A stretch of 49,521 nucleotides of DNA, taken from the NCBI GenBank assembly GCA_016874095.1, contig VGVH01000018.1:1-49521 (forward strand), in the 5' to 3' direction. Positions 21,475 to 46,729 of the stretch are shown here, in pieces. A program made the translations under genes and the position numbers. The stretch comes from Gammaproteobacteria bacterium. GTDB lineage: Bacteria > Pseudomonadota > Gammaproteobacteria > Steroidobacterales > GCA-2729495. Numbering within the stretch: the first letter of the stretch is position 1; each line of letters opens with the position of its first letter. The notes beneath the pieces are model-generated. The model ran no database searches, had not been told where the DNA came from, and saw nothing but the letters and a program-made list of their open reading frames with translations.

Positions 21475-23214
21475 GTGACCAGCACGCGCCGCCGGGGCGC
21501 CTTCAGGCGCCTGTCGCTCGGGCTCGGTCTTCTGGGTGCGGCACGCTTGGCCGCGGGCGCGTACGCCGACGACGTCGGGTTCACGAAACTGCAGCAGGAA
21601 CTCGGTGCCGGTACGCCGACCGGCGCCGGTGTAGTCGTCAGCCAGGTCGAGGCGGCGGTCACCGTCAAAGGCCAGCTGACCTGGTACCCGGACATCGGCA
21701 ACGTGCAGTTCGCCGGCAAGACCATCACCGATGTGTCCAATGCACCGGACGGCATCTATTCCGGCCACGCCACCAGCGTCGGCACGGTGTTCTACGGCAA
21801 CACCGGGTCCGTCGCCCCCGCCATCGACACCATTGCCAGCTATTACGCGTCGACCTGGCTGGGCGGCGAATTCCTCTGGGCCACGGGCGTGCAGCGGCCC
21901 GACAGTTCGGCGAGCCGCATCGTCAACCACAGCTGGGTCGGCGACGGGACGACGAGCAATGCCGAGATCCACGCGCGCGTCGACTGGGTCGTCGAGAACG
22001 ACGACCAGCTGCATGTCACGGGGATGAACAACAACATCGGTGCCAACACGCGGCCGCTCATGGGCAACAGCTACAATGTCCTGGCGATTGGCCGCAGCGA
22101 TGGGCTCCACCAGACCGGCTCCTTCGCGGTCGACGCCGTCTACACCGGCACGCGGGCCAAGCCCGACCTCGTCGTGCCGGCCGGCAGCACCAGCAACGCG
22201 GCACCCGGGGCGTCGGCGATCGCCGCCCTGCTGGTCCAGACCGGGCATGGCAACCCGTCGCTGTCGGTGAGTCCGGCGTACACCAACCGCGCGGGGCTGT
22301 CGATCTACAACGCCGAACGAACCGAAGTGCTGCGCGCCGCGCTGATGGCCGGCGCCGAGCGCGTCACCCGCAACACGAGCACGGCCAATCTCGGCATCTA
22401 CCGCGATGTCGCCGGCAACCAGACGGCCAACGGCCTCGACCGCCGGTATGGCGCGGGCCAGGTCAACGCCTACAACAGCTACCAGATGATCGCCGCGGGC
22501 GAACGCAACAGCAGCGAGGACGGTGGCGGTTCGGCCGGGGCGCGCGGCTTCGACTACGACCCGGCGTTCGGCGGCTCAGCCGGGAGCAATACGACCGCGA
22601 CCTATCCCCTGCCCGCCGCCACAGGCCCGCAGCTGCTCACCGCCAGCCTCGTCTGGAACCTGGAGATCCACGGCGGCACCCAGAACACCTTCAACGCGAC
22701 CGCCACCTACCGCGACCTGAATCTCTCGCTGATAGACACAGCGAATGACAATGGCGTCGTCGCGAGCTCGCAGAGCACGATCGACGGCACCGAGAACCTC
22801 TGGCTGGTCGTGCCGGCGGGGGCGCAGTACGCGTTGCGCGTCAGCCGGGCGGTGGCGACGAATTTCAACTACGACTTCGCCATCGCCTGGCAGCTGCTCA
22901 CCGACACCGACGGCGACGGCGCGCACGACGGCCAGGACAACTGCATCGGCAGGGTGAACGGCCCGATCCTGCGCGATCGGTCCGGCTTCAGCCAGCGCGA
23001 CTCGGACAACGACGGCTACGGCAATGTCTGCGACGCCGACCTGGACAACAACGGGACCGTGAACGCCGCCGACCTGAACATCTTCCGCGCGGCCTTCGGC
23101 TCGGCGAACGCCGCCGCCGACCTGGATGGCAGCGGCTTCGTCAACGCCGCCGACCTGAACATCTTCCGCAGCCTGTTCGGGTTCGCGCCGGGCCCCTCGG
23201 CCTACGCGCCCTAG
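21475..23214 (+). CDS. Divergent subtilase-like secreted protein with dockerin-like C-terminus
   Basis: 579 residues. A signal-type N-terminus ([20 protein letters not shown]) leads to a subtilisin-like domain. [11 protein letters not shown] occupies the catalytic-Asp strand with Glu instead of Asp. [14 protein letters not shown] fits the H-G-T-H block, GMNNN the oxyanion Asn, and [17 protein letters not shown] the G-T-S-x-A-A-P nucleophile block. Residues ~495-579 hold Asp-rich type 3 sequence and two N-A-A-D-L-N-I-F-R repeats ending [11 protein letters not shown] chose the GTG at 21475, which follows AGGGA by 8 nt; a GTG at 21457 is possible. The catalytic Asp change leaves activity uncertain. 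Its stop interleaves with that of folE. Confidence 0.7.
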
Positions 23215-23780
23215 CGGATCAGGCCGAGGAACTCGTTCCGCGTCTGCGGCTGGGTCCTGAAGTTACCCAGCATGCAGGACGTGGTCATGACGGAGTTCTG
23301 CTTCTCCACGCCGCGCATCATCATGCACATGTGCTGGGCTTCGATGACCACGCCGACGCCCTTGGCATGGATCGCGCCCTGGACGCACTCGGCGATCTGC
23401 TTCGTCAGCACCTCCTGGATCTGCAGGCGCCGTGCGAAAAGATCCACGACGCGCGCGATCTTCGACAGTCCCAGCACGCGGCCGTTGGGCAGATAGGCCA
23501 CGTGGCACTTGCCGATGAAAGGCAGCATGTGGTGCTCGCAGAGCGAGTACATCTCGATGTTGCGCACGATCACCATTTCGTCGGTGTCGCTGGTGAACAC
23601 CGCGTCGTTGACCAGCTCCGAGACGTTCTGGCGGTAGCCGCGGGTGAGGAAGTGCAGCGCCTCCGCCGCGCGCTCGGGCGTGCGCTCGAGTCCCTCGCGG
23701 TTCACGTCCTCGCCCAGCAGTTGCACGATTTCGCGAAAATGCCGCTCCATCGCCTCGATGACTTTTCTGTCGCCCGACAT
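23211..23780 (-). CDS. folE: GTP cyclohydrolase I
   Basis: 189 residues, zinc-dependent type IA enzyme that turns GTP into 7,8-dihydroneopterin triphosphate, the entry step for folate, biopterin and 7-deazapurine routes. Zn ligands are visible in [15 protein letters not shown] and [28 protein letters not shown] and [20 protein letters not shown] are also diagnostic. AGGAG stands 6 nt before the ATG. It is the last gene of the NRPS operon, 36 nt after NRPS3, on the same strand. With queD at the other end of the operon it would supply 6-carboxytetrahydropterin. A general folate role is the alternative. Confidence 0.95.
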
Positions 23781-23816
23781 CCCCCGCTCCTGCCGTTGTC
23801 CAATGAAGTGCGAAGT

Positions 23817-26800
23817 CTAGCCTGATCGGCTGCCCGCCGCGCTCTGCCGCTGGCGCCGCAGCGCAGGCAGGCCCTCGGGCAGAGCTTGCGAGCGTGTCCG
23901 CTCGATCGCCGCCGCCATCCCCGCGATGGTCGGCGACTCGAAGAGCGCGATAAGCGGCAGCTCGACGTCGAAGGCGTCACGCACGCGCGCGATCAGGCGC
24001 GTCGCGAGCAGCGAGTGGCCGCCGAGGGCGAAGAAGTCCTCGTGGGAACCGATGGTCTGGCGATCGAGGACGCCACACCACAGTGCTGCCAGCTGCTCGA
24101 GCGACGCCGGCGGCAGGTCCGTGGGCTCCGGCATGCGGGCCCGAACTGATGCCCGCGCGGCGTCGAGCGCGGACCTGTCGAGCTTGCCGTTCGCTCGCCG
24201 CGGCAGGGCGTCCATCGGCACGAACTCCGCCGGGATCATCGATTCCGGCAGCCGCTCGCGCAGCGCGCGGCGCAGCTCACCCTCGTCCACTGCGCCAGCC
24301 GGCGCCACCCAGGCGAGCAGCCTGTCCGCACCATCAGCGCCGCAGGCGAGCGCCACGACCGCATCGGCGCAACCGCATTCCCGCAGCGCCAGTTCGATGT
24401 CCGCGGGCTCGATGCGGATGCCGCGCAGCTTGACCTGCCGGTCCCTGCGGCCGGCGTGCACCCAGTTGCCATCCGGCAGCCGGCGCAGCTGGTCACCGCT
24501 GTGGAAGGTCCGCAGGCCATGGTCAGCGCTGTCGTCCGCCGGATCGACGTAGCGGGCCAGCACGGCACTCTCGAAGACGAGCTCGCCCAGCCAGCCGTCG
24601 ACCCGGACGCCGGAGCCGGGCACCGGCCGGCCGACGGGCAGGCGCTCGCCGAGGATTTTCGTGTCGTGGTCCGCGAAGAACTGCAGCGCGGTCGTGCTCT
24701 CCGAGAGGCCAAGGCCGTTGACCAGCCGGGCACCGCGTCCGAACCGCAGCCGGAACAGATCGAAGTCGCTGCGTCGCGCCTCCTCGCCTCCCAGCACGAC
24801 CAGGCGCACGCGCGAAAGATCCTGGTCGCAGGTGACGCGACCGCCGAACAGATGCCGGTAGACCGTCGGCGTGAGGTGCAGCAGCGTCACGCCGGACTGC
24901 GCGATGCGATCGACGAGCTCGGGTCCCGACTCCGCGCCACGCAGATCCAGCACCTCGATGGCCGCTCCGGCCACGAGTGCGCCGAAGATGTCCTGCACAG
25001 CGGCGTCGTAGCCCAGTGCCGCAACCAGCGCCAGCCGATCGGCGGGTCCGATGCCGAGCTGCCTGCCCCAGGCACGCACATGCGCGAGCGCGCCGGCGTG
25101 CGTCTGTTCGATCGCCTTCGGCCGTCCCGTCGTGCCGGAGGTATGCAGGCGATAGGCGGGCCTGCTGCCATCGACGGGTCCGGGCGGCGGCTCGCCTCCT
25201 CTGGCAGCGACGAGCGGCGCGCGCGGCAACGCCAGCAGTTCCCGTTGCCGCGCCGCGGGTGCCCAGGGATCGAGGGGCGCGTAGTGGCCACCCGAGCGCA
25301 GCACGCCGAGCACGGCCGCAATCATCGGCGCGTCGTGCGTGGCATCGACCGCCACGGCGCCCGGCTCGCCACGCGCCGCAGCACGGATCGCCACCGCGAT
25401 CGCGCCGGCGCGCGACCACAGCTCCGCGTACGACCAGTCATGCCGGCCGTCGCTGACTGCCGGGGCGTCCGGTTGCTCCAGCACGCGGGCAGCAATGGCC
25501 GAGACCAGCGTCTCGCCCGGATCGGCCGCAGCAGGTTCCCATGCCGGTGGCCAGACTCGCTCGTGCTCGGCTGCGAGACGGCACCGCCATGACGGGCCTG
25601 CAAGCGGCAGGTCGGCAAGGCGCAGCGCTGCATCGGCAGCCACTCCGTGCAGCAGTTCGCCGTAGCTCTCGGCCAGCAGCGCGACGGTTCCGGCATCGAA
25701 GAGATCCGTGTCGTACTCGATCCCGACTTCGAGCCCGCCGGCAGCCTCGATCACGCTCACGCTCAGTTCGTACTTCGCCGTGGCGCGGACGACGCCGATG
25801 CGCGATACGGCGAGGCCGTCGGGTGCGAACGCCTGGACCGGCTCGTTGTGGAAGTTGAACAGCACCTGGAAAAGTGGCGTGCGCGCGGGATCACGCACCG
25901 GCGACAGCGTCTCGACGATCTGCTCGAGCGGCACATCGCCACGCGACCAGGCGTCGAGCGTCACCGCCTTGGTCCGCTGCAGGATCTCGCTGAACCGCGG
26001 ATTCCCGCGCAGATCACCGCGCAGAGCCAGCGTGTTCACGAAAAACCCGACGAGTGGCTCGTGTTCCGGCCGCGGTCGGCCGGCATGCGGGATCCCGACC
26101 ACGAGGTCTTCATCGCCGCTCCAGCGCGCAAGCAGTGCCTGGAATGCGGCGAAGACTGCCATGAAGAGCGTCGCGCCCTCTGCCCTCGCGAGCTGGCGCA
26201 GCCGGCCGGTGGTTTCCGGCGGCACGTGCATCCCGAGGCGCGCACCGCGATGACGCTGGCGCACCGGCCGCGGATGATCGACTGGCAGGGCGATCGCCGG
26301 CGGCGCGCCGGCCAGGTGAGCACACCACCAGCGCAGTGCCTCGCCTCCGCTGCCCGCTGCGCGCTGCTGGTGCGCGACGTCCGCGTAACGGGTCGGCAGC
26401 GGCGACAAGTCCGGCGACTCGCCACGCCTCAGGGCAGCGTAGGCCGCAGCGAGGTCCCCGAGCAGCACCGACAGCGACCAGCCATCCGCGACGAGGTGGT
26501 GCACGACGACGAGCAGTGCAGCCTCGCTGCCTGACAGCTGCAGCACAGTCGCGCGCAGCAGCGGCCCGCGCTCGAGATCGAAAGGCAGCGCGACCCGCCG
26601 CGCGAGCTCGGCCTCCAGCGCGTCCTCGCGGATACCGGCCTGCTCGAGTACAACCGGCATGGCCGGCAGGATCACCTGTTCCGGCTCGCCGTCGGTCGCG
26701 CGGAACACCGTGCGCAGCGAGTCGTGCCGGTCGACGGCGTGGCGCAGCGCGGCTTGCAGCGCCGCCACGTCGAGCTGGCCGTTGATGCGCCAGGCAAGAT

Positions 26801-29800
26801 GCAGGTGCCAGGTACTCGTGCCCGGCTCGAGTTGCTCGAGGAACCACAGGCGACGTTGCTGCCAGGTGAGCGGCGCGCGCGTTCCGCGGGATCGCGCTGG
26901 AGCCGGTGCCGCCGTCGCCGGCACATCCGCGAGCAAGGCCCGGAGCGCGGCTACCGTCGGCCGCTCGAACACCGAGCGCAATGGCAAGGCACGGCCGAGC
27001 ATCGCCTCGACACGGGCGACGAAGCGCGCCGCCGCCAGCGAGTGCCCGCCCAGCGCAAAGAAGTCGGCGTGGATGCCGACCGGCGCGTCGATCGCCAGGA
27101 CGTCCTGCAGCGCCCGGCAGAGGGCCTCTTCTATCGCGTCACGCGGCGCAACGTGACCGGTCGCCTCACCCCACTGCGGCATCGGCAGCGCGCCGCGGTC
27201 GATCTTGCCGTTCGGGGTGAGCGGCAACGCATCGACCGGCACGATGGCCGCAGGCAGCATGTAGTCCGGCAGCATGCGGCGCAAAGCTTCACTCAGGACC
27301 GCAGCATCGAGGCGGGGGGCAACGACCCAGGCACAGAGCCGTTCGTCCCCCGGCGCCGGAGCGCGGATCGCGGCAGCAGCAGCCGCGACACCCGGCTGCG
27401 CGGCGAGCACTGCTTCGACCTCGCCCAGCTCGATGCGGAAACCGCGCAGCTTCACCTGACCGTCGTTCCGTCCCAGCAGCTCCACCCGGCCGTCGCGGCG
27501 AAACCTGGCGCGATCGCCGCTGCGGTACGCGCGGCCGAGCTGCGGTACCTCGATGAAACGCTCCGCCGTGAGCTCCGGCCGTCGCCAGTAACCCGCTGCC
27601 ACGCCGGCACCGGCGATCGCGAGTTCGCCCACGATGCCCGCTGGCAGCGGCCGACCGGCGGCGTCGAGGCAGGCCAGGCTGGTGTTGGCTACAGGCCTGC
27701 CTATGTGCGGCGTGTCTGCGGCATCGAGCCGCGCGACGGTCGACCAGACGGTCGTCTCGGTCGGTCCATAGAGGTTCCACAGCGCGGCACCGCGTTCGGC
27801 GAGCGCACGTGCCAGCGTGGCGTCGAGAGCCTCGCCGCCGGACAGGATCCGCAACGGCGGACAGCCGCGCCAGCCGGCAGAGACGAGCGCCCGCCAGGTC
27901 GATGGCGTCGCCTGCATCACGGTCGGTGCGCAGGCGGCGATCAGCCGCGCGAGCGCCGCGGGATCGCGCGCCTCCCCGGCGCTGGCCAGAACGACTGTTG
28001 CGCCGGCGGCCAGCGGACCGAGCAGCTCGAGCACCGCGATATCGAACGACAGCGTGGTGACGGCAAGCCAGCGGTCGCCCGAACCGATCCCCGGCTCGTG
28101 CAGCATGCTCCGCAGGAAATTGACCACGCTTCCATGCCGCACCGGCACGCCCTTGGGTGTCCCGGTGCTGCCCGAGGTATACAACAGATAAGCGCCGTCA
28201 TCGCCGGACACCGCAGCCTCGCCGGCCGGCGCGAGCGCGCAATGGAGGGGCTGCAGGTCCTCGATGCAGAGCACGCGCCCGGCGAAGGCGGCATGGCGGT
28301 CGAGCAGGCGGCGGCTGGTGACGAGCAGGCTGCAGCCACTGTCCTCGAGCATGAAAGCCAGGCGGGCCGGCGGAAACGCCGGATCCAGCGGCAGGTAGGC
28401 GGCGCCAGCGCGCAACACGGCGAGCAGCGCCGCGACCATTTCCGGGCTGCGCTCGAGGCAGAGCCCGACGACGCTGCCGCGACCGGCTCCGGCGAGCCGC
28501 AGGCGGTCGGCCAGCATCGACGACCAGTCGAGCAGGTCGCGGTAACGCCAGCTCGCGTTCCCGCACTCGATGGCCATCGCATCAGGATCGCGCTGCCCGG
28601 CAGCCAGCACGAGGCCGTGCACGGTCGCGGACGGCTGAGGTGACGGTAGGTCCTGCGCCGCGGTGATGACCCGCGCTTCCTCGCCGAATGGCAGTTCGTC
28701 GACAGGCATGGCAGGAGCGGCGAGCGCCGCATCGATCAGCGCCGCATAGCGCCGCGCCAGCGTCGCGACCGTGTCGGCATCGAACAGCGCCGTCGCGTAT
28801 TCGAAGCCGAGCCACAGCTCGCCGGCGTACTCCGTTGCCGACAGCGTGAGGTCGAATTTGGCGGCATCCGGCGCATCGGTCTCGGCCGGCTCCACGACGA
28901 TGCCTGGCATGCGGCCGGCTTCCCAGGGCGAGTTCTGCAGGATGAACATCACCTGGAATACGGGCGCGTGGGCGAGGCTGCGCGGCGGCCGCAGCGCCTC
29001 GACCAGCCGCTCGAAGGGCAGGTCCTGGTGGTCCCATGCCGCCAGCGCGGTCGCGCGCACGGCCGCAAGCGCGGCGCGGAATCCCTCGTTGCCGTCGATA
29101 CGCGCACGCAGCGGCAGCGTGTTCGCGAAAAAGCCCGCGACCGGCTCGAGTTCGGTGCGTCGCCTGCCCGCGACCGGCGTGCCGATCACCAGGTCGTCCT
29201 GCCCGGCATGGCGCCTCAGCAGCAGCGCGAACGCCGTGAAGAGCACCATGAACGGCGTCGCGCCCTCCGCCACTGCAAACTCGTGGATGCGACGCACGGC
29301 GTCGCGCGGGAGGATGTGGGTCCACCGGCTGCCCTGCCAGGACTGCACCGGCGGACGCGGCCGGTCGGTGGGCAGGTCGATGAGCGGCGGCGCGCCGGCA
29401 AGAGCTTCGCGCCACCAGGCGAGTTGCCGCTCGAGCGCCGCACCGGTGAGCCACTCCCGCTGCCACACGGCGTAGTCGGCGTACTGGACGGTGAGTTCCG
29501 GAAGCGCGGACTCCCGGCCTTCGATGTCCGCCGCATACAACTCGGCCAGATCCCGGAACAGCACGCCGCTCGACCAGGCATCGCCGATTGCATGGTGCAT
29601 CAGGAGCACGAGCACGTGATCATCCGCCGCCGCGTCGATCAGCACGAAGCGGACGAGAGGGCCCGCGGCGAGCTCGAAGCGCTGCCGGGAAACGGCGGTT
29701 ATCGCCGCGCGCAGCGCGGCATCTCCCTCGACGCTGCGGCGCTCGAGCGGAACAGAAACGCAAGGCGACACCAGCTGCACCGGCTCCCCGTCGCGCGTGG

Positions 29801-35900: not shown

Positions 35901-38900
35901 TCCGCGGGCGTCGCTGACTCGATCGCGAGCCGGATGCAGCCGGCCGGCAGCTCACCGGTGCCGGGCCGGCCGCCACTCGCCGGAAATACCGCGCGCAGCT
36001 GCGGATGCCTGGCGACCGCAGCCGCGAATGCGGCCTGCAGCAAGGCGGGTTCGATCGGACCATCGATCAGCACGGTCCAGGCGACGTTGTAGGCCGGGCT
36101 GCCCGGATCGAGCTGGTCGAGGAACCAGAGGCGCTCCTGCGCGTAGGACAACTGATCGGCCACCGCAGGTACAGGAAGAGGCAGCCGGACGACCGGCTGG
36201 CGACTGCGCAGGACTGCGGCCAGCCCTGCCACGGTGGGTGCCGCGAACAGATCGGCCAGCGTGAGCTCCAGGCCGAAGTGACCGTTCAGGCGCGCGATCA
36301 CGCCCATCCCGGCCAGCGACTCGCCGCCGAGATCGAAGAAGCTCTGGTTGCGGGACACGGCGCTGCGGCCGAGGCGCGCCGCGAATTGCGCGGCGATCGC
36401 CTGCTCGACGGCATCGGCAGGCGGCGTGACGTCGATGTCGAGCGCTGCGGACGGCGCCGGCAGCCGGACGCGATCGACCTTGCCGCTCGGCGTAAGCGGC
36501 AGCGCATCGAGGACGACCCAGGCGGCAGGACACAGCGCGCCAGGCAGCCGCTCGGCAATGCGCGCCGCGCAGTCCGCGGACGTCAGCGTCGCGGCGTCCG
36601 GCACGACATAGGCGACAAGCTGCGCCATGCCGGCCTCTTCCCGCAGGACGACCGCTGCATCGCGCACCGGCAATTCGCGCCGCAACAGCGACTCGATCTC
36701 GCCGGGCTCGATGCGCCAGCCACGCAGCTTCAATTGCCGGTCGACGCGACCGAGACATTCCAGCGTGCCGTCTGCGAGCCAGCGCGCCAGGTCGCCGGTG
36801 CGATACAGCCGCAGGCCGGGCTGGAACGGCGCATCGACATAGCGCTCCGCCGTCAAAGCCGCACGCCGCCAGTATCCCGGACCGACGCCGACCCCGGCGA
36901 CGCAGAGCTCGCCGGCGACCCCGGCCGGCACCGGCTGCATGCGGTCGTCGAGTACGTAACAGGCCATGCCGGGAATCGGCCGGCCGATCGGGACGCGGGT
37001 CGCGCCGGAGGCGATATCGGTCGTGTCGAAACAGGTTGCGTCCCAGATTTCGGAGGTGCCGTAGGTGTTCAAGATGCGCACGGCCGGCAACGAGCAGCGC
37101 GCGCGATCCAGCAGCTGTGGCGACAGCGGCTCGCCACTCGTGACGAGCCGGCGCAGCGCGGGCAGCCGGCTGCCCGCTACATCAAGCAACGCACTGAGCA
37201 GCGACGGCACCACGACCAGGTGAGTGACCGCGGATGCGGCCAGCGCCGGCCCCAGCCGGTTGGCATCCCGCGCAACCTCGGCGGGGAGTATCACCAGCGG
37301 CACGCCGTGCAGCAGGGACCCGAAGATCTCCCACAGCGAGTCGACGAAGTTGAGGCTGGTGCGCAGACAAAAGCGCTCGCCGGCGTCGAAGCCGTATTCG
37401 CGCCACATCCAGCGGCAGCGGTTCAGGATCGCAGCGGTGCCGAGCAGTGCGCCTTTCGGCTCGCCGGTCGAGCCGGAGGTATAGAGCAGCAAGGCCGCAC
37501 GGTCGGCCGCCAGCGCGGGCAGAGATGCCTCGGTCGGACATGGCGCATACACATCGATGCGCGGGACACCCGGCAGGCTGGCGCCGGCGCCGATCAGCGC
37601 GGCCAGGCCGGCATCGGCGGCGATGAAGTCGCGACGCGCCGGCGGATACGACGGGTCGAGCGGCACCGCCACTGCGCCGGCGCCGATGACGCCGATCAGC
37701 GCGGCGACGAGGTCCGGCGAGGGCGGCAGATCCAGCGCGACCCGATCGCCGGGCGCGACACCGGCAGCGACCAGCGCGTTCGAGATGCACAGGGCGCGAT
37801 CCAGCAGCGCCGCACCACCCATCCGCGCGTCACCGTGCTCGAGCGCAATGCCTTCACCGCGCGCGACCAGCGCCTCGGCGAGCACCGCGGAAAGCTCACC
37901 GGCGGGCGCTGCCTGCGCCAGCGTGTTGCACTCCTCGAGTACGCGACGACGCCCGGCATCGTCGAGCAGCGGCAGCTCGTCGACTGGAGTGGCCGGCGCC
38001 GCGGCGACCGCCTCGAGCAAGCGGCTGTAGCTGCCGATCATTTCCCGGACCAGGTTCCCGTCCAGCACTGCCGTGGCCCAGCCGATGTGCCCCGCGAAGC
38101 CGCCGCCCTCGCCGTGGTCGAGCAGCGAGCACTCGAGGTCCCACCATGAGTCCCGCGGCGCGCAGACCGGCTCGATCGTCCAGGAGACCGCGCCTCTGAC
38201 ACAGCCCGCCGGCGCGGAGTCGAACTGGAAGAGCAGCTGCGAGATGGCCCGGCGTGGATCGGCGCCGGGTGCGCGCAGGGCGACCGCGATGTCCCGCAAC
38301 GGCGCCGTGCGATGGGCGAGCGCACCGAGCACGGAGTCGCGCTCGGCGGCCAGCAGCCCGCCGAAAGACATGCCCTCGTCGACCGTCGTGCGCAGGGGCA
38401 GCGTGTTGATCAGGCAGCCGACGGCGCGTGAGTCGGCAGCGTCCTCGCGCAGGGTCACCGGCACACTCACCAGCACATCGCGCTCGCGCGAGTAGCGAAC
38501 CAGCAACACCCGCCATGCGGCAAGCAGGACGGTGAACACGGTGCAACCCTGCTCCCGCGCCAGGCGACGCAGGCTCCGGGCCAGCGGCGCTTCCACGGCG
38601 AACGGCAGGCGCAGGGACTCGCGCGCCATCGCCCCCGCGACACCCGATCGGGGCAGCCCGTGCCCCTGCGGCGCCCCGGCAAGCGTCGCGCGCCACCAGG
38701 CGACATCGGCCTGCACCCTGCCGTCGCGGTCATGCCCGCGCGGGAGACGCGCCGCGGGAGACGCGACCGGCGGCAACCCTGACGCCGGCGCTGCATACAG
38801 GGCAGCAAGATCGTCGCGAATCACCGCGACCGAGGGACCGTCGGCCACGATATGGTGCGCGGTCACCAGCAGGCGGTGATCGCGCGGACCGACAGGCACC

Positions 38901-39406
38901 AGCACGGGACGCAGCAGCGGGCCGCATCGCAGGTCGAACGGCCTTCGCGACTCAGCGGTCGCGAGCTGGCGCCAGGCTGCGTCGTCGAGCTCACCCGCGA
39001 GGCTCGGCGCGATCGGCGCAGCGGCGCCGGGTTCCTGCCATACCTCGCCGCCCTCATCTGCGAAGCGTGAGCCGAGCACCGGGTGCCGTGCCACGACAGC
39101 ACGCCAGGCTGCAGCGAGCCGCTCACGGTCGATCTCCCCGGCGATGCGGATCACGAACTGCTCGTGACTGCCGGCGTGGCCGTGCCAGAGGCGGTCGAGG
39201 AGCCAGAACTCGAGCTGGGCAGCGCCGAGCGGCAGTCGGCGGGGCCCGCGTACCAGGTCGAGCAATTCGAGCTTGTGCTGGCGCAGCCGCTCGAGCGTGG
39301 CTTCGTCGAGCGCGTCGGCCGGCGCGTCGTATCGCAGCCTCGAACCGTCGGCCCACAGCTCGACGCCCGCGCGATGCAGGCGATCGAGCAACTCGGTCGC
39401 GGTCAT
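29981..39406 (-). CDS. Nonribosomal peptide synthetase, modules 2-4 (docking-C-A-T-C-A-T-C-A-T)
   Basis: 3141 residues. Residues 1-52 match a TubC N-terminal docking domain (ELLDRLHRAGVELWADGSRL), which pairs with the upstream synthetase. Then C1 (57-480; HHIVADG 184-190), A1 (500-980), T1 (Ser1030, LGGES), C2 (1085-1510; HHAVTDG), A2 (1525-2015), T2 (Ser2062), C3 (~2110-2530; HHAIADG), A3 (~2570-3020), T3 (Ser3080). Specificity residues read by eye are V-D-W-V-V-S-T-D-A for A1 (beta-amino acid type), D-V-G-E-A-G-T-I-D for A2 (close to an ornithine code) and D-T-Q-H-V-G-G-T-A for A3 (unassigned). No epimerase domain is seen. The start overlaps NRPS1 as ATGA. Confidence 0.93.
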   Translation of the reverse strand: MTATELLDRLHRAGVELWADGSRLRYDAPADALDEATLERLRQHKLELLDLVRGPRRLPLGAAQLEFWLLDRLWHGHAGSHEQFVIRIAGEIDRERLAAAWRAVVARHPVLGSRFADEGGEVWQEPGAAAPIAPSLAGELDDAAWRQLATAESRRPFDLRCGPLLRPVLVPVGPRDHRLLVTAHHIVADGPSVAVIRDDLAALYAAPASGLPPVASPAARLPRGHDRDGRVQADVAWWRATLAGAPQGHGLPRSGVAGAMARESLRLPFAVEAPLARSLRRLAREQGCTVFTVLLAAWRVLLVRYSRERDVLVSVPVTLREDAADSRAVGCLINTLPLRTTVDEGMSFGGLLAAERDSVLGALAHRTAPLRDIAVALRAPGADPRRAISQLLFQFDSAPAGCVRGAVSWTIEPVCAPRDSWWDLECSLLDHGEGGGFAGHIGWATAVLDGNLVREMIGSYSRLLEAVAAAPATPVDELPLLDDAGRRRVLEECNTLAQAAPAGELSAVLAEALVARGEGIALEHGDARMGGAALLDRALCISNALVAAGVAPGDRVALDLPPSPDLVAALIGVIGAGAVAVPLDPSYPPARRDFIAADAGLAALIGAGASLPGVPRIDVYAPCPTEASLPALAADRAALLLYTSGSTGEPKGALLGTAAILNRCRWMWREYGFDAGERFCLRTSLNFVDSLWEIFGSLLHGVPLVILPAEVARDANRLGPALAASAVTHLVVVPSLLSALLDVAGSRLPALRRLVTSGEPLSPQLLDRARCSLPAVRILNTYGTSEIWDATCFDTTDIASGATRVPIGRPIPGMACYVLDDRMQPVPAGVAGELCVAGVGVGPGYWRRAALTAERYVDAPFQPGLRLYRTGDLARWLADGTLECLGRVDRQLKLRGWRIEPGEIESLLRRELPVRDAAVVLREEAGMAQLVAYVVPDAATLTSADCAARIAERLPGALCPAAWVVLDALPLTPSGKVDRVRLPAPSAALDIDVTPPADAVEQAIAAQFAARLGRSAVSRNQSFFDLGGESLAGMGVIARLNGHFGLELTLADLFAAPTVAGLAAVLRSRQPVVRLPLPVPAVADQLSYAQERLWFLDQLDPGSPAYNVAWTVLIDGPIEPALLQAAFAAAVARHPQLRAVFPASGGRPGTGELPAGCIRLAIESATPAERQVRRIALAREPFDLAHGPLVRATLFLDAGCPAEIVLVMHHAVTDGGSNAILFREIAEAAAVLGRGEELRWSPPAATYAQFAARQRTTAGEAHLGWWLGRLRGAPAAIEWPTDHPRPPEQSFRGAWLRRSWGPRRARALRAYARHAGTTPYIVLLAALKSLAVRYTGGNDIVIGTPVSLRPSAELEGVVGLFVNTLALRTELSGDPSFTEILARVRATVEGALAHHELPFERLVAVLEPERSLSRAPVFQTLFNLVTMPQRSARVGAAQLRLGPLLDHGVAAFDLALTVGDFPDGLELVFEYATDLFREETVAALADAWEALLDDAMESPHRHLSALRVHGTDTSPILHGRRAGQGARLPVLERIAAITRSGPQAPALQLVDTVLTRAGLEEEASRVMRCLADRGIGRGQRVGLLLPREPVLVSALLGVLRAGAAYVVLDPGLPPARLAMLARDAELALILAGPDAAAAIAGVECVDMHGCDGGGTPASEVAPDDPACLVYTSGSTGEPKAVVVTHANLAATVEGWIDTWQLTPADVHLQMAASSFDVFNGDWLRALATGGRLVFCPREVLLDPPALHALIALAGVTVAEFVPAVLRPLLAWIGQVGERLDGLRLVAVGSERWQAEEYRALQALCRPDARVLNTYGVAEATIDSSWFEGVPDLRRPLPVGQPFPQARLAVVDERLRPAATGAVGELLIGGDGVAAGYWRRPDLSALRFVEVDGIGRAYRSGDRARLRADGLVELLGRADSQVKRRGFRLELGEVESALAALPGVAAAAVESREEQGVGQLCAWVEPRPGCLLQPDDLAAALRALLPQYALPDVVAVVARLPISPNGKIDRAALATPAPSRGAAGSDAPRDPVEALLAELYADVLGSGGPVGVHTDFFAAGGHSLLAARLVARIRETLGCELSLRALFDAPTVAGLAAALRSAPRAAAPAAVAVERPARIPLTPQQRRLWFLDQLEPGNAAWHIPVAWRLRGTVDESALERAFAAVAARHESLRTRFLAHEGEPFQLIEPGCGSTLQRLDVAPGAALDAALAVFVAQAFDLGRGPLWRALLARCGEAEAVLLVVLHHAIADGWSVGILAHEIGAAYAGQGARLPALPLQYADYAQWQEGLLSGSQLDAARRYWRAALAGAPAVMNLPLDRPRSVVASSRGAWHRFTIPAATVASLRRIAAEEHATLFMVLLAAYQSLLARWTGDEDLVIATPVAGRAATATEPMIGYFLNMLALRGDLSGNPAFGAVVGRARRTMLDAFAHAELPFEQVVELAAPRRSRAHQPLAQVLLVLHNQPRRALVLSGLSVEEQPLTGEAVKFDLALHVAEEGGSLAASFAFNTDLFHAGTIEDLAEGLVSLLDAAAADSRLALGDLPVCGPRALGRLAAERARVWPAPAASVTGSAGGTVLERIAAQVATRPQAPAVAAAGQCWSYAELWGRAGAIAAALPSGAGIAVLAGHDAGMVAAVLGVLRAGGAYVPVDPLLPAARQQALLRDVAAIVADPAHAEVARRLAGAVLPVIIAGGTAQWNGPTPTPGATAYRLHTSGTTGEPRGVEQTHAGLAAHAHAWSRQLALSPADRLALVAALGFDTATQDIFGALTSGACLEVVDLRASSPVGIVERLAAAGVTVLHLTPTLLRHLFAGEAAAAVPTVRLVVLGGEAALSSDFELFCRCFARGARLVNGLGLTESTTALQFFADHDTRIAGERLPVGSAVPGTLLRVEDSDGRESWCGELVLGGERIARYAGSPPLRELRTGDRLRRLSDGHWAHAGRLDRQLKLRGIRIEPSEVEAALRSVPTVRDAFVDVVAAGDGTQLVAWVVTAAAIDEPALRAALRGRLPAVSVPTRFIQLAELPRRPNGKLDSGALHAPPGRTAPAVALATPALGRLAELWEELLGCGPVPAEGDFFALGGHSLLAARLVARVRDIFAVELPLATIFDTPTLAAMAEAIRTSRAGSACALPPVRRLERRGESAP

Positions 39407-42312
39407 AGGTCGCCGTGCTTGCGGCGGGCCTCGCCGGCGCCGCGCTGCTCGCCCGACCGCGAACGCGCAGGCCCGTAGAGCCGCCCTACGGCTTGCGCAT
39501 GGCGCTCGTGCAGGTAACGCGACAACGCGGCGATCGTCGGCGCCTCGAATACCGCGGCCAGCATCACGCCATCGTCGAGCAGTTTCTGGAGCCGCGTGGT
39601 CATGCGCACGGCTGCGACGGAATCGCCACCGAGGTCGAAGAAGTTGTCCTGCACGCCCAGCGCCACCGCGCCGAGAACTTCGGACCAGATCGCCGCGAGG
39701 TCCGACTCCAGCGCCGTCTCCGGCGCACCGCCGTGGCCGCCCCAGGTGCGCTCGGGCGTGGGCAGCGCGCGCCGATCGAGCTTGCCGTTCGGCGTCCGCG
39801 GCAGGGCGTCGAGCAATATCAGGGCATTCGGCAGCAGCGGCTCGGGAAGGCGTTCAGCGAGCCAGCCTCGCAGGCTGCCAGGCTCGAGTGGCGGACGCTG
39901 CACCGGCTCGCAGTCGACTGCTGCCAGCAGCCGCTGGTGCAGCGGCGTGCCGCCGCGGACGGTCTCGTGGTGGCGCGACTCGCAGCGGAAACGAAGCTGG
40001 CTGCCGCCCTGCTCCAGCGCGGCGCTGATGCGGTAGTCAGGGCAGACACTGTCCGCCCCGCTACGCCGCTCCCAGTCTGCCTCGATGCGCGTGCCGCGGC
40101 CGATGTCCGGCGGGTCGACGGGAAGCGGGATGAACACCGGCAGCCAGGCCTGCTGGTGCGCGAGGTAGTCGATCGACACGCCGTCGATCGTCGTCACGAC
40201 GGTCCACAGCAGGAATCCGTCGAAGCGGCCGTCCCGCTGTGCGCTGAATCCGGCGCGCCCGGCAAGCTCCACGGGCAGCGGGCCCGAAAAATCGAGATCC
40301 TCGAAGAGCGCCGGTGAAGCCAACAGGCATGACGTCGGCAGGTTGCGGACGCACAGACGCGGGTCGAACACCCGACGCTGCGACTCGAACAGCCGGCGCA
40401 GGTATCGCGCGGCGATCGGGCCGAACGCGGGCGCGTCACGCAGCGACGCGGGCAATTCCACCGGCGCAATCCAGGTCGTGCAGCGCGCCGGGACCGGGAT
40501 GACTCCCCGGGCGAGACGCGGCCACAGGCTGTTCCAGACGGGAACGATGCCATCGGCGCTGCCGATGTTGCCGACGATGCCCTGCGCGCACACCTCGGCC
40601 GGCTCGGGCAGCTCGACCGTCGCGGCATCGCCGGTGAGCACCGTGATCCGATCGGCAAGTCCGGCAGCAGCCACCGCCGCGCGCGCCTGCGCAGCAGCGT
40701 CGGGCAGCAGCTCGATGGCATGGACGTGGCGCGCGCCCGCGGCGACCGCCAGCCGGGCGAGCAAGGCATGCGGGCCGGTGCCAACGTCGAGCACGACCTT
40801 GCCGCGCGCCTGCCGCTCGAATGCGACGCGATGCGCCTCGACGCGCCGGGCGTCGCTGGTCATCAGCTCGTAGAGAAAATCGTCGTAGACCTGATAGCCG
40901 CCGAGCGACGGCCAGAACTCCGGCCGCTCATGGCTCCGCTCGCCATCGGTGCCGGCAACGACGTAGGCAACCAGCTTCTCCTCGCCACCGGCATCGGCAC
41001 GCACAGCCGCCGCGGCTTCGGCAACGGCCGGATGCGATCGCAGGAGGGTCTCGATTTCGCCGAGCTCGAGGCGGTGCCCGCGCCACTTGACCTGATCGTC
41101 AGTGCGACCGCGGAACTCGACGGAGCCGTCGGGACGCAGGCAGACGCGATCCCCGGTCCGATAAGCGATGGTTCCCGGGGCGATCCGCAGGAACCGCTCG
41201 GCCGTAAGTGCCTCGTCGTCCAGATAACCCTGCGCGACGCCTGGCCCGCTCACCGCGAGCTCGCCCTCCCCGCCCGGCGCGACCGGCAGGCCGGACGCAT
41301 CGAGGACATGGAGAGAAACGTCGGTGAGCGGCTTGCCGATATTCGCGGCATCGATGTCGCCGTCGGCGTACTGCCGCAACATGACGTTGCCGCCTGTCTC
41401 GGTGATGGCGTACGTATTGAGCAGCCGCGGGCGCGGCCCCGCGCCGCGCGACCACGCCACGAGATCGTCGCCGCGGACAGCTTCGCCGCTCAACACCAGC
41501 GCGCGCACGGCGGTCTCTGCCCAGGCACCATCGAAGGCCGTCGAGAGCGCCGTACTGCGCCAGGCAGACGGCGTCTGGCTCAGGATCGTGACGCCCGACC
41601 GGCGCAGGTAGTTGCGCATTTCTCGTGCGTCGCCACGCACGGCCGCAGGCGCGATGGCCAGCTCTCCGCCGGAACCGAGCGCGCCCCAGATCTCGAAGAT
41701 CGAAAATCCGAAGGCACTCGAGTGGATCTGGCTCCACACTTCACCGGGGCCGCGGCCGAGGACAGCGCCAAGGTCGTCGAACAATCGCGCGACGTTCGCG
41801 TGGGTGACGACCACGCCTTTCGGTTCCCCGGTCGAACCCGAAGTGAAGACGATGTAGCAGGCGTCGCCCGGAGCGGAGGTGTTCGCGACGTCGGCGGCCG
41901 ACGCGGCCTCGATCGCGGCAGCATCCCGCTCGAGATGCAGCGTCGGATACGCCGTTCGCCAGTCGCTGTCGACATCGCCGGATGTGACGAGCAGTCCCGG
42001 CCTGCCGCGCGCCGCGATCCGGGCGAGCCGCTGCGCCGGGTACCCGGGGTCGAGCGGCAGGTAGGCAGCACCGGTCTTCAGGACGGCGAGCAGCGTGGCG
42101 ATCCAGTCGACACCGCGCGGCAGGCAGACGCCGACCCGCTCACCGGCGCAGGCTCCACGCACCCGCAGTGCCGCGGCGACGCGGTTGGCGCGGGCATTCA
42201 ACCCGGCGTAGTCCAGCGTCACCTCCGCAGCAGAAACGGCGCGCGCATGGGGCCGCTCCCGCGCGTGCCGCTCGACGGCCTGACTCAGCGTGTGATCGCG
42301 CAGGTCCGCCAT
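39403..42312 (-). CDS. Nonribosomal peptide synthetase loading module (A-MT-T)
   Basis: 969 residues with no condensation domain, so it should start the peptide. The A domain spans 1-455 (A3 IVFTSGSTGEPKGV; A5 TYAITETGG) and 815-850 (A10 PNGKLDR). A SAM methyltransferase of the protein-arginine-methyltransferase type is inserted at ~465-770 (VVLDVGTGPHALLARLA; IVGNIGSADGIVPVWNSLW). The T domain Ser898 is in FFDLGGDS. The A4 motif is SSAFGFSIFEIWG: Gly202 stands where alpha-amino-acid-activating domains have Asp235. The substrate is therefore likely a carboxylic acid without a free alpha-amino group. The PRMT double-E loop acids are absent, so arginine methylation is unlikely. Confidence 0.9.
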   Translation of the reverse strand: MADLRDHTLSQAVERHARERPHARAVSAAEVTLDYAGLNARANRVAAALRVRGACAGERVGVCLPRGVDWIATLLAVLKTGAAYLPLDPGYPAQRLARIAARGRPGLLVTSGDVDSDWRTAYPTLHLERDAAAIEAASAADVANTSAPGDACYIVFTSGSTGEPKGVVVTHANVARLFDDLGAVLGRGPGEVWSQIHSSAFGFSIFEIWGALGSGGELAIAPAAVRGDAREMRNYLRRSGVTILSQTPSAWRSTALSTAFDGAWAETAVRALVLSGEAVRGDDLVAWSRGAGPRPRLLNTYAITETGGNVMLRQYADGDIDAANIGKPLTDVSLHVLDASGLPVAPGGEGELAVSGPGVAQGYLDDEALTAERFLRIAPGTIAYRTGDRVCLRPDGSVEFRGRTDDQVKWRGHRLELGEIETLLRSHPAVAEAAAAVRADAGGEEKLVAYVVAGTDGERSHERPEFWPSLGGYQVYDDFLYELMTSDARRVEAHRVAFERQARGKVVLDVGTGPHALLARLAVAAGARHVHAIELLPDAAAQARAAVAAAGLADRITVLTGDAATVELPEPAEVCAQGIVGNIGSADGIVPVWNSLWPRLARGVIPVPARCTTWIAPVELPASLRDAPAFGPIAARYLRRLFESQRRVFDPRLCVRNLPTSCLLASPALFEDLDFSGPLPVELAGRAGFSAQRDGRFDGFLLWTVVTTIDGVSIDYLAHQQAWLPVFIPLPVDPPDIGRGTRIEADWERRSGADSVCPDYRISAALEQGGSQLRFRCESRHHETVRGGTPLHQRLLAAVDCEPVQRPPLEPGSLRGWLAERLPEPLLPNALILLDALPRTPNGKLDRRALPTPERTWGGHGGAPETALESDLAAIWSEVLGAVALGVQDNFFDLGGDSVAAVRMTTRLQKLLDDGVMLAAVFEAPTIAALSRYLHERHAQAVGRLYGPARSRSGEQRGAGEARRKHGDL

Positions 42313-42317
42313 GCTGA

Positions 42318-43085
42318 TTACCCGCCAGGACGCCGGCAGCTCAGCCCGAGAACCGGCGGATTCTCCAGGTACTCGCGCCAGTAAGCGGCGCCATGGCTCT
42401 CGATGCCTGCCGGATCGACCGCGGGTGCGTGCCAGGCGATGTCGGTGAAGCCAGCCGCGGTCAGCGCCCGCTCGTAGGTACGGCGCTCGTAGTGGTAGAC
42501 CTCGAAACGGAACAGTTCCCTGCCGCTCACCATCGCGTAGGTGATGGGCGCGCCCTCGCGGCGCGGGCTGACGACCGACTTGCTGAAGCCATAGTCGAGG
42601 TACCCGCGGTAGCGCTCCTCCGGCTGCTCGGGATTCTCATTGAGCGCTACGAAGCGGCCACCCGGTGGCAGCCGGGAAGCGATGCCGTGGCACATCGCCT
42701 CGAGCTCGCCGACGTCACGTGCGTAATGCAGTAGGTAGGCGGCGCAGACCAGGTCGTAGCTGCCGGTTTCCGCAAGACAACGCGCATCGCCGACGGCAAA
42801 ACTCAGGCCCGGAAGCAGCGATTGACCGCGGGCGAGCGCGATCATCTGCGGCGAGATGTCGATGCCGTGGACGCATCGCGCGCCGCGGGACGCCAGCAGG
42901 CGCGAATAGTGCCCATCGCCGCAGGCGAGGTCGAGCACCGTCAGACCCGACACGTCGCCGAGCCAGCCGAGAAAGCTCCAGGCCTCGACGTAACGGCTGA
43001 GGGGCGAATGCTTGGACTGGCTGTAGGAACCGGCGATTGCATCGTACTGGGTAACCGGCGCGAAAACCGCGGGATTAGCGCTCAT
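42318..43085 (-). CDS. Class I SAM-dependent methyltransferase
   Basis: 255 residues with a Methyltransf_25/11-type fold. Motif I is VLDLACGDGHYSRLLASRGA; motif II is HGIDISPQMIALARG. Then come the DLVCAAYLLHYARD post-motif and LPPGGRFVALNENP (motif III). The ATG overlaps the deaminase stop (ATGA), and NRPS1 starts 5 nt downstream, so it belongs to the NRPS operon. It may methylate the starter unit, the peptide or a pterin ring nitrogen; the sequence does not say which. It is not part of an assembly line, having no carrier domain. Confidence 0.88.
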   Translation of the reverse strand: MSANPAVFAPVTQYDAIAGSYSQSKHSPLSRYVEAWSFLGWLGDVSGLTVLDLACGDGHYSRLLASRGARCVHGIDISPQMIALARGQSLLPGLSFAVGDARCLAETGSYDLVCAAYLLHYARDVGELEAMCHGIASRLPPGGRFVALNENPEQPEERYRGYLDYGFSKSVVSPRREGAPITYAMVSGRELFRFEVYHYERRTYERALTAAGFTDIAWHAPAVDPAGIESHGAAYWREYLENPPVLGLSCRRPGG

Positions 43086-43552
43086 GCAGACCTCCCGCCC
43101 GCCCACGCGCGCAGCAGGGACAGCGCTTCGGTGCGCAGACAGCCGCCACGCATCGCGGGCCCCGCGACCGTCACGCCGAGCTCGCCGCCGGTCAGTGCCT
43201 GCATGTCGGCGAGACTCGCTGCGTAAACGATTTCGCCGATGCCCGCGTAGTGGCTGGCCGCCTGGCACATCGCGCAGGGCTCGACGGTCGAATACAACAC
43301 TGTGCCGCTGAGATCGAGCGTGCGGCCGCGACGGCAGGCTTCGCGAATGAGCATCACCTCGGCGTGCGCGGTGATGTCGAGTTCGGCAATGACGGCGTTG
43401 GCAGCCGTTGCGATGACGGCGCCGTCGCGAACCAGGCAGGCGCCGATGGGCGGTTCGCCGGCGAGTGCAGCCCGGCGCGCCGCGGCGAGCGCTAGACGCA
43501 TGAATGCCTCGTCGCCGGTTACGCCCGGTTCGGTACCAGCGACTGCCGCCAT
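43082..43552 (-). CDS. CDA-superfamily zinc deaminase (guanine/adenosine-deaminase-like)
   Basis: 156 residues. The zinc and catalytic signature is complete: ITAHAEVMLIREA (His63, Glu65) and VEPCAMCQAASHYAGI (Cys93, Cys96). The length and the EPPIGACLVRDGAVIATAAN start resemble nucleoside/guanine deaminases and TadA. Its place between queD and the methyltransferase, with a 1-nt and a 4-nt overlap, argues for a role in the operon product rather than tRNA editing. A pterin-type substrate (2-amino to 2-oxo, giving a lumazine) is my hypothesis; guanine, cytosine or a nucleoside cannot be excluded. Confidence 0.82.
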   Translation of the reverse strand: MAAVAGTEPGVTGDEAFMRLALAAARRAALAGEPPIGACLVRDGAVIATAANAVIAELDITAHAEVMLIREACRRGRTLDLSGTVLYSTVEPCAMCQAASHYAGIGEIVYAASLADMQALTGGELGVTVAGPAMRGGCLRTEALSLLRAWAGGRSA

Positions 43553-43926
43553 CACCCGCCCTGTCCTTCGTCCTCGCCGCGATAGATGCAGCCCGAGGTG
43601 CAGGTTTCGTTGATGACGACCCGCGACAACGCCGGCAGTGCCGGTTTCAGCTGTCGCCAGATCCAGCGCGCCAGGATCTCGCTCGTCGGGTTCTCGAGGC
43701 CCGGGATGTCGTTGAGATAGTTGTGGTCGAGCTGGCTGAATATCGGCTCGAAGGCGCGGCGGATATCGGCGTAGTCCATGATCCAGCCGCTGTGCGCGCC
43801 GATCTCGCCCTGCACGTAGATCGTGCCCTTCCAGGAGTGCCCGTGCAGCCGCGCGCAACGGTGCCCGCTCGGCACGTTCGGCAGCAGATGCGCGGCCTCG
43901 AAGACGAACTCCTTATATATTTCCAT
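43552..43926 (-). CDS. queD: 6-carboxytetrahydropterin synthase (QueD/PTPS family)
   Basis: 124 residues. The zinc ligands are His13 (FEAAHLLP) and His28/His30 (RLHGHSW). The catalytic Cys24 lies in [10 protein letters not shown], the C-x-x-x-H-G-H motif of QueD, and the His/Glu pair is in LDHNYLN and NETCT. QueD converts 7,8-dihydroneopterin triphosphate to 6-carboxy-5,6,7,8-tetrahydropterin, which carries a free carboxylate. It is the first gene of the NRPS operon, and folE is the last. QueE, QueC and the rest of the queuosine route are absent from the window, so a dedicated secondary-metabolite role is plausible; ordinary queuosine supply is the alternative. Confidence 0.92.
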
Positions 43927-45245: not shown

Positions 45246-45304
45246 CCCGTCAGCGGGTTACGCGACGCTGGCCGCGGGCCGAAACGCACCTCTACAATGG
45301 CGGG

Positions 45305-45973
45305 ATGGCACAACCAACCATCGCCGTCATTGGCGGCACAGGATCCCTGGGCAGCGGCCTCGCCAGACGCTGGGCGCAGGCCGGTTTCACGGTACGCATC
45401 GGCTCGCGTGTCGGTGGCAAGGCTGCCGCGGCAGCGGCTGAGCTGGCAGCGGCTCTCGGCGGCGCCAAGGTGACCGGTCACGCCAACCTGGAGGCAGCGC
45501 AGGGCGCAGGCATCGCGGTGCTGGCGGTGCCGTTCGCCCATCAGCGCCCGATCCTCGAGGAGATCCGCCCGGCGCTGGCCGGCAAGATCCTCGTCGACAC
45601 CACCGTGCCGCTGGTACCGCCGAAGGTCATGCGGGTGCAACTGCCGGCAGAAGGCTGTGCAGCACTGATCGCGCAAGGCATCCTCGGCACAGACACTGTT
45701 GTCGTGTCGGCGTTTCACAACGTCGCGGCCGACATGCTGGCCTCGGGCGCCGATCCGGAATGTGATGTGCTGGTGGCCGGCGACAAGGCCGAGGCGCGCG
45801 AGACCGTCGTGCGCCTGGCGCAGGCCGCCGGCTTCCGCGCCTGGCACGCGGGCCCGCTCGCCAATTCGGCGGCGATGGAAGCGCTCACCTCCGTGCTGAT
45901 CTTCATGAACCGGCACTACAAGGCCGAACACGCCGGCATTCGTGTCGCCGGCGTCACATGCCGGACGCCCTGA
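45305..45973 (+). CDS. npdG: NADPH:F420 oxidoreductase-like protein
   Basis: 222 residues. The Rossmann motif is IAVIGGTGSLGSGLARRWAQ and the NADP-selecting residues follow in RIGSRVGGKAAAAAAELA. Matches to the F420-reductase family continue with VAVPF-like VLAVPFAHQR, ILVDTTVPLVPP and AFHNVAADMLAS. It passes electrons between NADPH and F420, here presumably to supply F420H2 to the LLM enzyme just upstream. The 3' end overlaps cofE by 16 nt, so the two are co-translated. The gap to the LLM gene is 59 nt. Confidence 0.9.
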   Translation: MAQPTIAVIGGTGSLGSGLARRWAQAGFTVRIGSRVGGKAAAAAAELAAALGGAKVTGHANLEAAQGAGIAVLAVPFAHQRPILEEIRPALAGKILVDTTVPLVPPKVMRVQLPAEGCAALIAQGILGTDTVVVSAFHNVAADMLASGADPECDVLVAGDKAEARETVVRLAQAAGFRAWHAGPLANSAAMEALTSVLIFMNRHYKAEHAGIRVAGVTCRTP

Positions 45974-46719: not shown

Positions 46720-46729
46720 GAATGCCGGC

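What the first reader, a model, noticed from the sequence alone, without database searches (positions are those of the whole stretch)
23211..43926. Operon linking pterin biosynthesis (folE, queD) with a six-module NRPS
Seven same-strand genes run queD, CDA-type deaminase, methyltransferase, NRPS1, NRPS2, NRPS3, folE, with gaps of -4 to +36 nt. GTP cyclohydrolase I plus QueD give 6-carboxytetrahydropterin, a free carboxylic acid. NRPS1 is a loading module whose A domain lacks the alpha-amino-binding Asp. Together this suggests a peptide capped with a pterin- or lumazine-6-carboxylate. Fungal penilumamides show that lumazine-carboxamide peptides exist in nature; I know of no described bacterial operon of this form.
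Basis: partly seen in the sequence, partly recalled or inferred. Interest (0 to 1): 0.88.

Follow-up and report, generated by a model that had tools for sequence, protein, structure and literature searches.

The report
Bacterial NRPS operon with pteridine genes
One family of gammaproteobacteria carries a conserved peptide-assembly operon whose accessory genes suggest that it caps a small peptide with a methylated pteridine (a folate-like ring), an unusual starter unit that a single enzyme assay could confirm or refute.

Summary
The operon is real: queD, deaminase, methyltransferase (MT), three NRPS genes (six modules) and folE, one strand, gaps -4 to +36. It is conserved family-wide: MT in 35 of 40 family-f1 genomes and 1 of 59 others; some cluster part in 39 of 40. 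New evidence supports a pteridine. (1) The MT's best solved relatives, alone near full length in the list, are ToxA, N-methyltransferase of the azapteridine toxoflavin. (2) The operon folE is a paralog distinct from two other copies. (3) The starter A domain has Gly at Asp235 in all ten domains read, with an embedded PRMT-like MT. Predicted product: N-methyl-lumazine- (or pterin-) 6-carboxyl-betaAla-Orn-X-Gly-X. Against: queD is the genome's only PTPS and may serve queuosine; three genera keep the NRPS without adjacent queD, and one 96%-complete genome shows no PTPS. Closest known: pepteridine cluster and fungal lumazine peptides. No chemistry was tested.

The parts
43552..43926 (-). queD, 6-carboxytetrahydropterin synthase
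   Evidence: TIGR03367 QueD equivalog over cut-off; CxxxHGH motif in 23 of 23 loci holding queD; only PTPS match in the genome
43082..43552 (-). CDA-fold deaminase (TadA/guanine-deaminase type), proposed pteridine deaminase
   Evidence: PF00383; nearest solved relatives TadA and guanine/guanosine deaminases; HAE...PCxxC in 31 of 31. Substrate inferred
42318..43085 (-). stand-alone ToxA-like N-methyltransferase
   Evidence: profile A1 vs PDB: 8rdl 'ToxA protein' 2e-54 and 5jdz/5jdy/5je3 groups (labelled only 'Methyl transferase'; ToxA by recall) 1e-52 to 5e-51, near full length; next best 1e-19 over half
39403..42312 (-). NRPS1 starter module A-MT-T
   Evidence: Pfam; code GFFSVSTGN(K), Gly at 235
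39877..40950 (-). embedded PRMT-fold methyltransferase of NRPS1; PRMT double-Glu loop not kept
   Evidence: PRMT6 E 2e-14 by sequence; model pLDDT 73, Foldseek PRMT6 E 2e-22, TM 0.65
29981..39406 (-). NRPS2: TubC-type docking domain + C-A-T x3; codes VDWVVSTDA (beta-Ala-like), DVGEAGTID (Orn-like), DTQHVGGTA (unknown)
23817..29984 (-). NRPS3: C-A-T-C-A-T, no thioesterase; codes DILQLGLVW (Gly-like), DAQHVGGTA (unknown)
23211..23780 (-). folE-A, GTP cyclohydrolase I paralog of the operon
   Evidence: TIGR00063; in another clade than the genome's two other copies
44178..45245 (+). LLM-class oxidoreductase, Mer-like; close relatives seen only in genus g1 loci
   Evidence: PF00296; best NCBIfam PRK02271 Mer 115 bits, below its cut-off of 276; 79-89% identity in six g1 loci, 30-36% elsewhere
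45305..45973 (+). npdG, NADPH-dependent F420 reductase
   Evidence: TIGR01915 equivalog over cut-off
45958..46719 (+). cofE, F420-0:glutamate ligase
   Evidence: TIGR01916 over cut-off
46715..47674 (+). cofD, 2-phospho-L-lactate transferase
   Evidence: TIGR01819 over cut-off
47671..48351 (+). cofC, 2-phospho-L-lactate guanylyltransferase
   Evidence: TIGR03552 over cut-off
48348..49521 (+). fbiC-like FO synthase (N-terminal radical-SAM part; runs off the contig)
   Evidence: Radical_SAM; sequence read; FO synthase name recalled
18132..19292 (+). beta-lactamase-fold serine hydrolase, convergent with folE here and in some relatives; weak candidate release enzyme
   Evidence: PF00144; found beside or near folE in L135, L157, L180, L206 and at 5.7 kb in L161 (5 of 15 loci)

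Best explanation
The operon makes a short nonribosomal peptide whose N-terminal cap is a pteridine-6-carboxylic acid. FolE-A turns GTP into dihydroneopterin triphosphate and QueD makes 6-carboxytetrahydropterin (established chemistry of these families). The CDA-type deaminase probably removes the 2-amino group (pterin to lumazine). The ToxA-like MT and/or the embedded PRMT-fold MT add ring N-methyls. NRPS1 loads the carboxylate, and modules 2-6 add beta-Ala, Orn, X, Gly, X. Shown here: gene content, domain order, family membership, conservation, starter code without Asp235. Inferred: every substrate, the deamination and methylation sites, the aromatising oxidation, the release step (no thioesterase) and the function of the peptide.
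For: MT profile: the ToxA group is hit at 2e-54 to 5e-51 near full length, at least 31 orders of magnitude better than the next of the 60 hits listed of 128; in Streptomyces klenkii a relative of this MT sits near a second MT of the kind and a GTP cyclohydrolase II-like ORF, both recognised by eye. Operon folE is a separate paralog: eight relatives' NRPS-linked copies are 72-86% identical to it, f1 copies of the other clades 38-48%. Starter code with Gly235 conserved. No biopterin-dependent aromatic hydroxylase match in the genome. queC lies on another contig and none of the seven operon genes is a queE or queC. Fungal 1-methyllumazine-6-carboxyl peptides exist (PMC4377984, abstract and passages seen).
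Against: queD is the sole PTPS and may be housekeeping. Genera g4, g7 and g9 keep CDA-MT-NRPS1 without adjacent queD. G024 (96% complete) has no PTPS match, and G015 and G017 only a divergent one. G015 and G017 gave no folE of the operon clade, and that clade also holds the lone folE of family f5, which has no cluster beside it. The embedded MT also occurs in an unrelated NRPS-like gene without pterin genes (G273), so it is no pteridine marker. A-domain codes are interpreted by recalled rules. No MIBiG or antiSMASH comparison and no chemistry was possible.
Confidence: 0.58

Rival explanations
1. queD is only a housekeeping queuosine gene that sits in front of an NRPS operon. The real cluster is CDA-MT-NRPS(-folE), and its starter is a pteridine whose carboxylate does not come from QueD, or a different aryl acid.
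For: Only PTPS match in the genome; QueC match in 98 of 99 genomes, some of them weak, the own one strong (2e-71); cluster without adjacent queD in g4, g7, g9; G024 lacks any PTPS match.
Against: queD and CDA overlap by one base in the window, and queD is adjacent in 26 of 31 f1 genomes with both. Several genomes of the order (for example G040, G044, G045, G046, G047, G054) have strong QueC but no PTPS match, so QueD is not strictly tied to queuosine there. A dedicated folE stands at the other end.
Confidence: 0.22
2. NRPS1 loads an ordinary aryl or beta-amino aryl acid (anthranilate-like; fungal anthranilate codes also have Gly at 235, recalled), and FolE/QueD/CDA/MT supply a separate pteridine cofactor or decorate the peptide late.
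For: Gly235 is not specific for pteridines; the code has no known match that I could test.
Against: No aryl-acid biosynthesis gene was recognised among the flanking genes that I annotated (not every flanking ORF was searched). QueD gives a carboxylic acid that fits the missing alpha-amine. No tetrahydrobiopterin-type hydroxylase match in the genome.
Confidence: 0.13
3. A 7-deazaguanine (toyocamycin-like) or toxoflavin-like free heterocycle is made, and the NRPS belongs to a different pathway that shares the operon.
For: folE + queD is the start of 7-deazapurine pathways (recalled); ToxA-like MT.
Against: No queE or queC among the operon genes, genomic queC on another contig; no GTP cyclohydrolase II in the operon; MT, CDA and NRPS1 stay together in 31 of 31 loci examined.
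Confidence: 0.05

Closest known systems
Pepteridine cluster, Photorhabdus luminescens (eLife 2017, PMC5384830; one section and passages read)
   Same: Gammaproteobacterial cluster joining GTPCH I and a PTPS-family gene to NRPS parts.
   Different: There only a T and a C domain fused to a pyruvate-dehydrogenase E2-like protein plus an E1-like subunit, pteridine reductase and pyrophosphokinase; no A-MT-T starter, six-module line, deaminase or ToxA-like MT is named in the section read.
Fungal lumazine peptides (terrelumamides PMC4377984, passages; penilumamides PMC9861175, passages)
   Same: Peptides capped by N-methyllumazine-6-carboxylic acid (terrelumamides), the cap predicted here.
   Different: Fungal, very short, anthranilate ester end; PMC9861175 (2023) says the penilumamide cluster was not characterised.
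Toxoflavin N-methyltransferase ToxA (PDB 8rdl, and 5jdz-5je6 by recall; PMC10708333 passage)
   Same: Near full-length homology of the stand-alone MT.
   Different: Toxoflavin is made by toxABCDE (PMC10708333 passage); it is a free azapteridine made without an NRPS (recalled).
Toyocamycin-type 7-deazapurine clusters (recalled)
   Same: folE and queD homologs in one cluster.
   Different: queE/queC homologs absent from the operon here; NRPS present.

Membership tests
Pteridine-starter NRPS (proposed) | starter A domain without the alpha-amine-binding Asp | tested here: met
   Gly at 235 in 10 of 10 domains captured
Pteridine-starter NRPS (proposed) | A domain activates a pteridine carboxylate | not testable with these tools
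   needs enzymology
Pepteridine-type cluster | E1/E2 2-oxo-acid dehydrogenase-like parts fused to T and C | tested here: not met
   no such domains in the seven operon genes
QueD (6-carboxytetrahydropterin synthase) | QueD equivalog score and CxxxHGH active site | tested here: met
   103 bits against cut-off 89; motif
ToxA-type N-methyltransferase | near full-length similarity to ToxA above other solved MTs | tested here: met
ToxA-type N-methyltransferase | methylates a pteridine or azapteridine ring nitrogen | not testable with these tools
   no assay
Protein arginine methyltransferase | PRMT fold | tested here: met
   best matches in sequence and fold are PRMTs (model pLDDT only 73)
Protein arginine methyltransferase | double-Glu substrate loop (positions recalled) | tested here: not met
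   in the PRMT6 alignment the two Glu face Gly and Ala; loop reads QGIVGNIGSADGI
7-deazapurine cluster | queE and queC homologs in the cluster | tested here: not met
   none among the operon genes; QueC of the genome on contig C3; none recognised by eye among flanking ORFs
F420 biosynthesis operon (neighbour) | cofC, cofD, cofE, fbiC | tested here: met
   equivalog cut-offs for cofC, cofD, cofE; fbiC only partly in the window

The most novel reading that the evidence does not exclude
A whole bacterial family keeps, usually at one locus beside the F420 operon, an NRPS that makes an N-methyl-lumazine-6-carboxyl-betaAla-Orn-X-Gly-X pentapeptide with a core physiological role (metal chelator, photoactive pigment or redox cofactor), possibly in partnership with F420.
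Probability: 0.3. Interest if true: 0.87.

Novelty: new variant of a known kind. Interest (0 to 1): 0.73.

Why it matters
If true it would be, as far as the searches here show, the first bacterial NRPS known to use a pteridine carboxylate as starter unit. It would give a genetic basis for N-methyllumazine peptides (fungal compounds; the penilumamide cluster was uncharacterised in 2023, PMC9861175), supply a candidate pteridine deaminase of the CDA fold, and pose the question why a family conserves one NRPS so strictly. It can be tested with single purified proteins.

Tried and rejected
Co-loss of queD, F420 and NRPS: first suggested by five MT-negative and six CofD-negative f1 genomes (Fisher test on sets that I entered by hand from those outputs). 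Rejected: four of the five MT-negatives still carry other cluster parts (NRPS1 in G033 and G038; NRPS end plus folE in G023 and G028). These absences look like assembly gaps and the Fisher values should not be used.

Tetrahydrobiopterin cofactor idea: no PF00351 match in the genome. Riboswitch control of queD: no Rfam match in the window or around the queD start. Embedded MT as pteridine marker: rejected because of G273. L066 has a 37% CDA-like match 3.4 kb from the MT but no NRPS1. In 369 class genomes the embedded MT was found in G000 and G017, in G273, and weakly in three more. FolE tree: the operon clade also holds the lone folE of family f5, so it is not exclusive to the operon.

Literature searches (papers): pterin + NRPS + GTP cyclohydrolase + gene cluster (18: 1, pepteridine); pterobactin (19: 0); lumazine + NRPS + biosynthe (33: 10, listing; one then read in passages); pteridine + nonribosomal + cluster + methyltransferase + deaminase (48: 0); penilumamide (49: 30, 20 listed); Woeseia/F420/nonribosomal (50: 61, 20 listed); toxoflavin (56: 2); 6-carboxytetrahydropterin synthase + nonribosomal peptide + cluster (57: 0); lumazine peptide + gene cluster (83: 14, listing; PMC12843210 passages, lumazine only in a citation); pteridine + adenylation domain + cluster (84: 4, listing). 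Nothing that I saw described this operon; only open-licence PMC papers were searched, and most hits only as listings.
Full report
Observation. The window is a whole contig (C18) of a 2.8-Mb genome rated 100% complete; the window's G+C is 69.7%. On the - strand, queD, a CDA-fold deaminase, a class-I methyltransferase, three NRPS genes and folE follow each other with gaps of -4 to +36 nt. NRPS1 is A-MT-T. NRPS2 has an N-terminal TubC-type docking domain and three C-A-T modules. NRPS3 has two C-A-T modules and ends after the T domain, without a thioesterase.

Conservation. Among 99 genomes (40 of family f1, 59 of other families of the order), the MT profile hits 35 of 40 f1 genomes and 1 of 59 others (E up to 1e-20); the latter, G049, has the MT alone in the 20 kb fetched. 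Four of the five negatives have NRPS1 or the NRPS end plus folE on other contigs. Only G039 (70% complete) gave nothing with the two MT profiles, so part of the cluster is seen in 39 of 40. CDA-MT-NRPS1 stand in order in the window and in all 30 f1 loci fetched, that is 31 of the 35 MT-positive f1 genomes; five queD loci of other families (L044-L048) have queD alone. The operon is thus nearly universal in one family and was not seen elsewhere.

Which genes belong. folE: the 31 f1 genomes searched have one to four FolE matches each. In the tree all NRPS-linked copies fall in one clade. They start 39-136 bp after the last NRPS match in G000, G002, G007, G008, G012, G013, G014, G020 and G021, and stand behind an NRPS end in G016, G018, G023 and G028. 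The clade's fork support is modest (89/100) and it contains the lone folE of family f5. G024 keeps it about 5 kb beyond the NRPS; G029's copy has no NRPS in the 12 kb fetched; G015 and G017 gave only other-clade copies. queD: the only PTPS match of the genome; adjacent in 26 of 31 genomes with both genes, but separate in g4, g7 and G029 of g9. G024 has no PTPS match and G015 and G017 only divergent ones. QueC matches occur in 98 of 99 genomes, some weak. queD may serve both queuosine and the peptide, and its role in the peptide is the weakest link.

The methyltransferases. The A1 profile hits 8rdl, labelled ToxA protein, at 2e-54 and three groups labelled Methyl transferase (5jdz and kin, ToxA by recall) at 1e-52 to 5e-51, over nearly the whole length; the next protein is at 1e-19 over half. 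ToxA is predicted to be the N-methyltransferase of the last toxoflavin step (PMC10708333, passage). In Streptomyces klenkii (L064) a relative of this MT sits near a second such MT, a GTP cyclohydrolase II-like ORF and a transporter-like ORF, recognised by eye. The MT embedded in NRPS1 is PRMT-like by sequence (2e-14) and by predicted fold (pLDDT 73; PRMT6 2e-22, TM 0.65), but the two Glu of the PRMT loop face Gly and Ala. The same domain occurs, at 34% identity, in an NRPS-like gene of G273 without pterin genes beside it.

Specificity. Codes were read on GrsA numbering. Starter: G[FY][FW]SxS[TS]G[NQR] in the 10 NRPS1 domains captured of 16 genomes, five genera. Module 2: [VI]DW in 16 of 16, like beta-alanine (VDWVISLADK, recalled). 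Module 3: DVGE[IA]G[ST][IV]D in eight genomes, like ornithine (recalled), and DIES[VI]GTI in G024 and G029. Module 5: DILQLG[LM][IV]W in four genomes, like glycine (recalled). Modules 4 and 6: DA[QM]HVGG (DTQHVGG in module 4 of the window), unknown. The deaminase motif HAE...PCxxC is kept in 31 of 31 and the QueD CxxxHGH motif in 23 of 23 loci that hold queD.

Surroundings. Divergent to the operon lie npdG, cofE, cofD, cofC and a truncated fbiC-like gene. cofE is on the opposite strand upstream of the operon in 29 of 31 loci; L033 and L035 lack it within the stretch held. CofD occurs in 34 of 40 f1 genomes and 9 of 59 others. In genus g1 a Mer-like LLM oxidoreductase stands between. On the other flank lie haem genes (PF01379 and PF00202 proteins, named hemC and hemL by me; a hemL relative near folE in 5 of 15 loci: L135, L159, L165, L180, L194) and, in some genomes, a beta-lactamase-fold hydrolase. 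Whether F420 acts in the pathway is unknown.

Mechanism and verdict. The most economical reading is GTP to dihydroneopterin triphosphate (FolE-A) to 6-carboxytetrahydropterin (QueD), then oxidation, deamination (CDA) and N-methylation (ToxA-like MT and/or embedded MT) to an N-methyllumazine- or pterin-6-carboxylate, which NRPS1 loads and the line extends with betaAla-Orn-X-Gly-X. The steps after QueD are inference. It would work like the unknown source of lumazine peptides. It is not a pepteridine-type cluster (E1/E2 parts absent) and not a 7-deazapurine cluster (queE/queC not in the operon). I rate it a new variant of a known kind (NRPS with an aryl-type starter), of high interest because one enzyme assay can settle it.

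Noticed in passing
44178-49521: An F420 biosynthesis operon (npdG, cofE, cofD, cofC, start of fbiC) in a gammaproteobacterial family, conserved next to the NRPS operon.
   Followed up: partly
relatives: Several genomes of this order (for example G040, G044, G045, G046, G047, G054) have strong QueC but no PTPS/QueD match, suggesting an unknown replacement of QueD or salvage.
   Followed up: no
L031/L137 and L159 (G013): In G013 the NRPS region is split: queD-CDA-MT-NRPS at 3.19 Mb and an NRPS end plus folE at 0.756 Mb, with an NRPS in reverse orientation after the first part; rearrangement or misassembly.
   Followed up: no
L064:5401-13436: Streptomyces klenkii locus with two ToxA-like methyltransferases and a GTP cyclohydrolase II-like ORF (by eye), perhaps a fervenulin/toxoflavin-type cluster.
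   Followed up: partly
L203/L204 (G273): A 3587-aa NRPS-like protein in an AT-rich region of a genome of another family carries the same embedded PRMT-like methyltransferase.
   Followed up: partly
18132-19292: Beta-lactamase-fold serine hydrolase convergent with folE in some relatives; such enzymes can release NRPS products (recalled), but this one has an N-terminal hydrophobic stretch.
   Followed up: partly
3109-5943: TonB-dependent receptor on the same contig, about 17 kb from the operon; relevant if the product is a metallophore.
   Followed up: no
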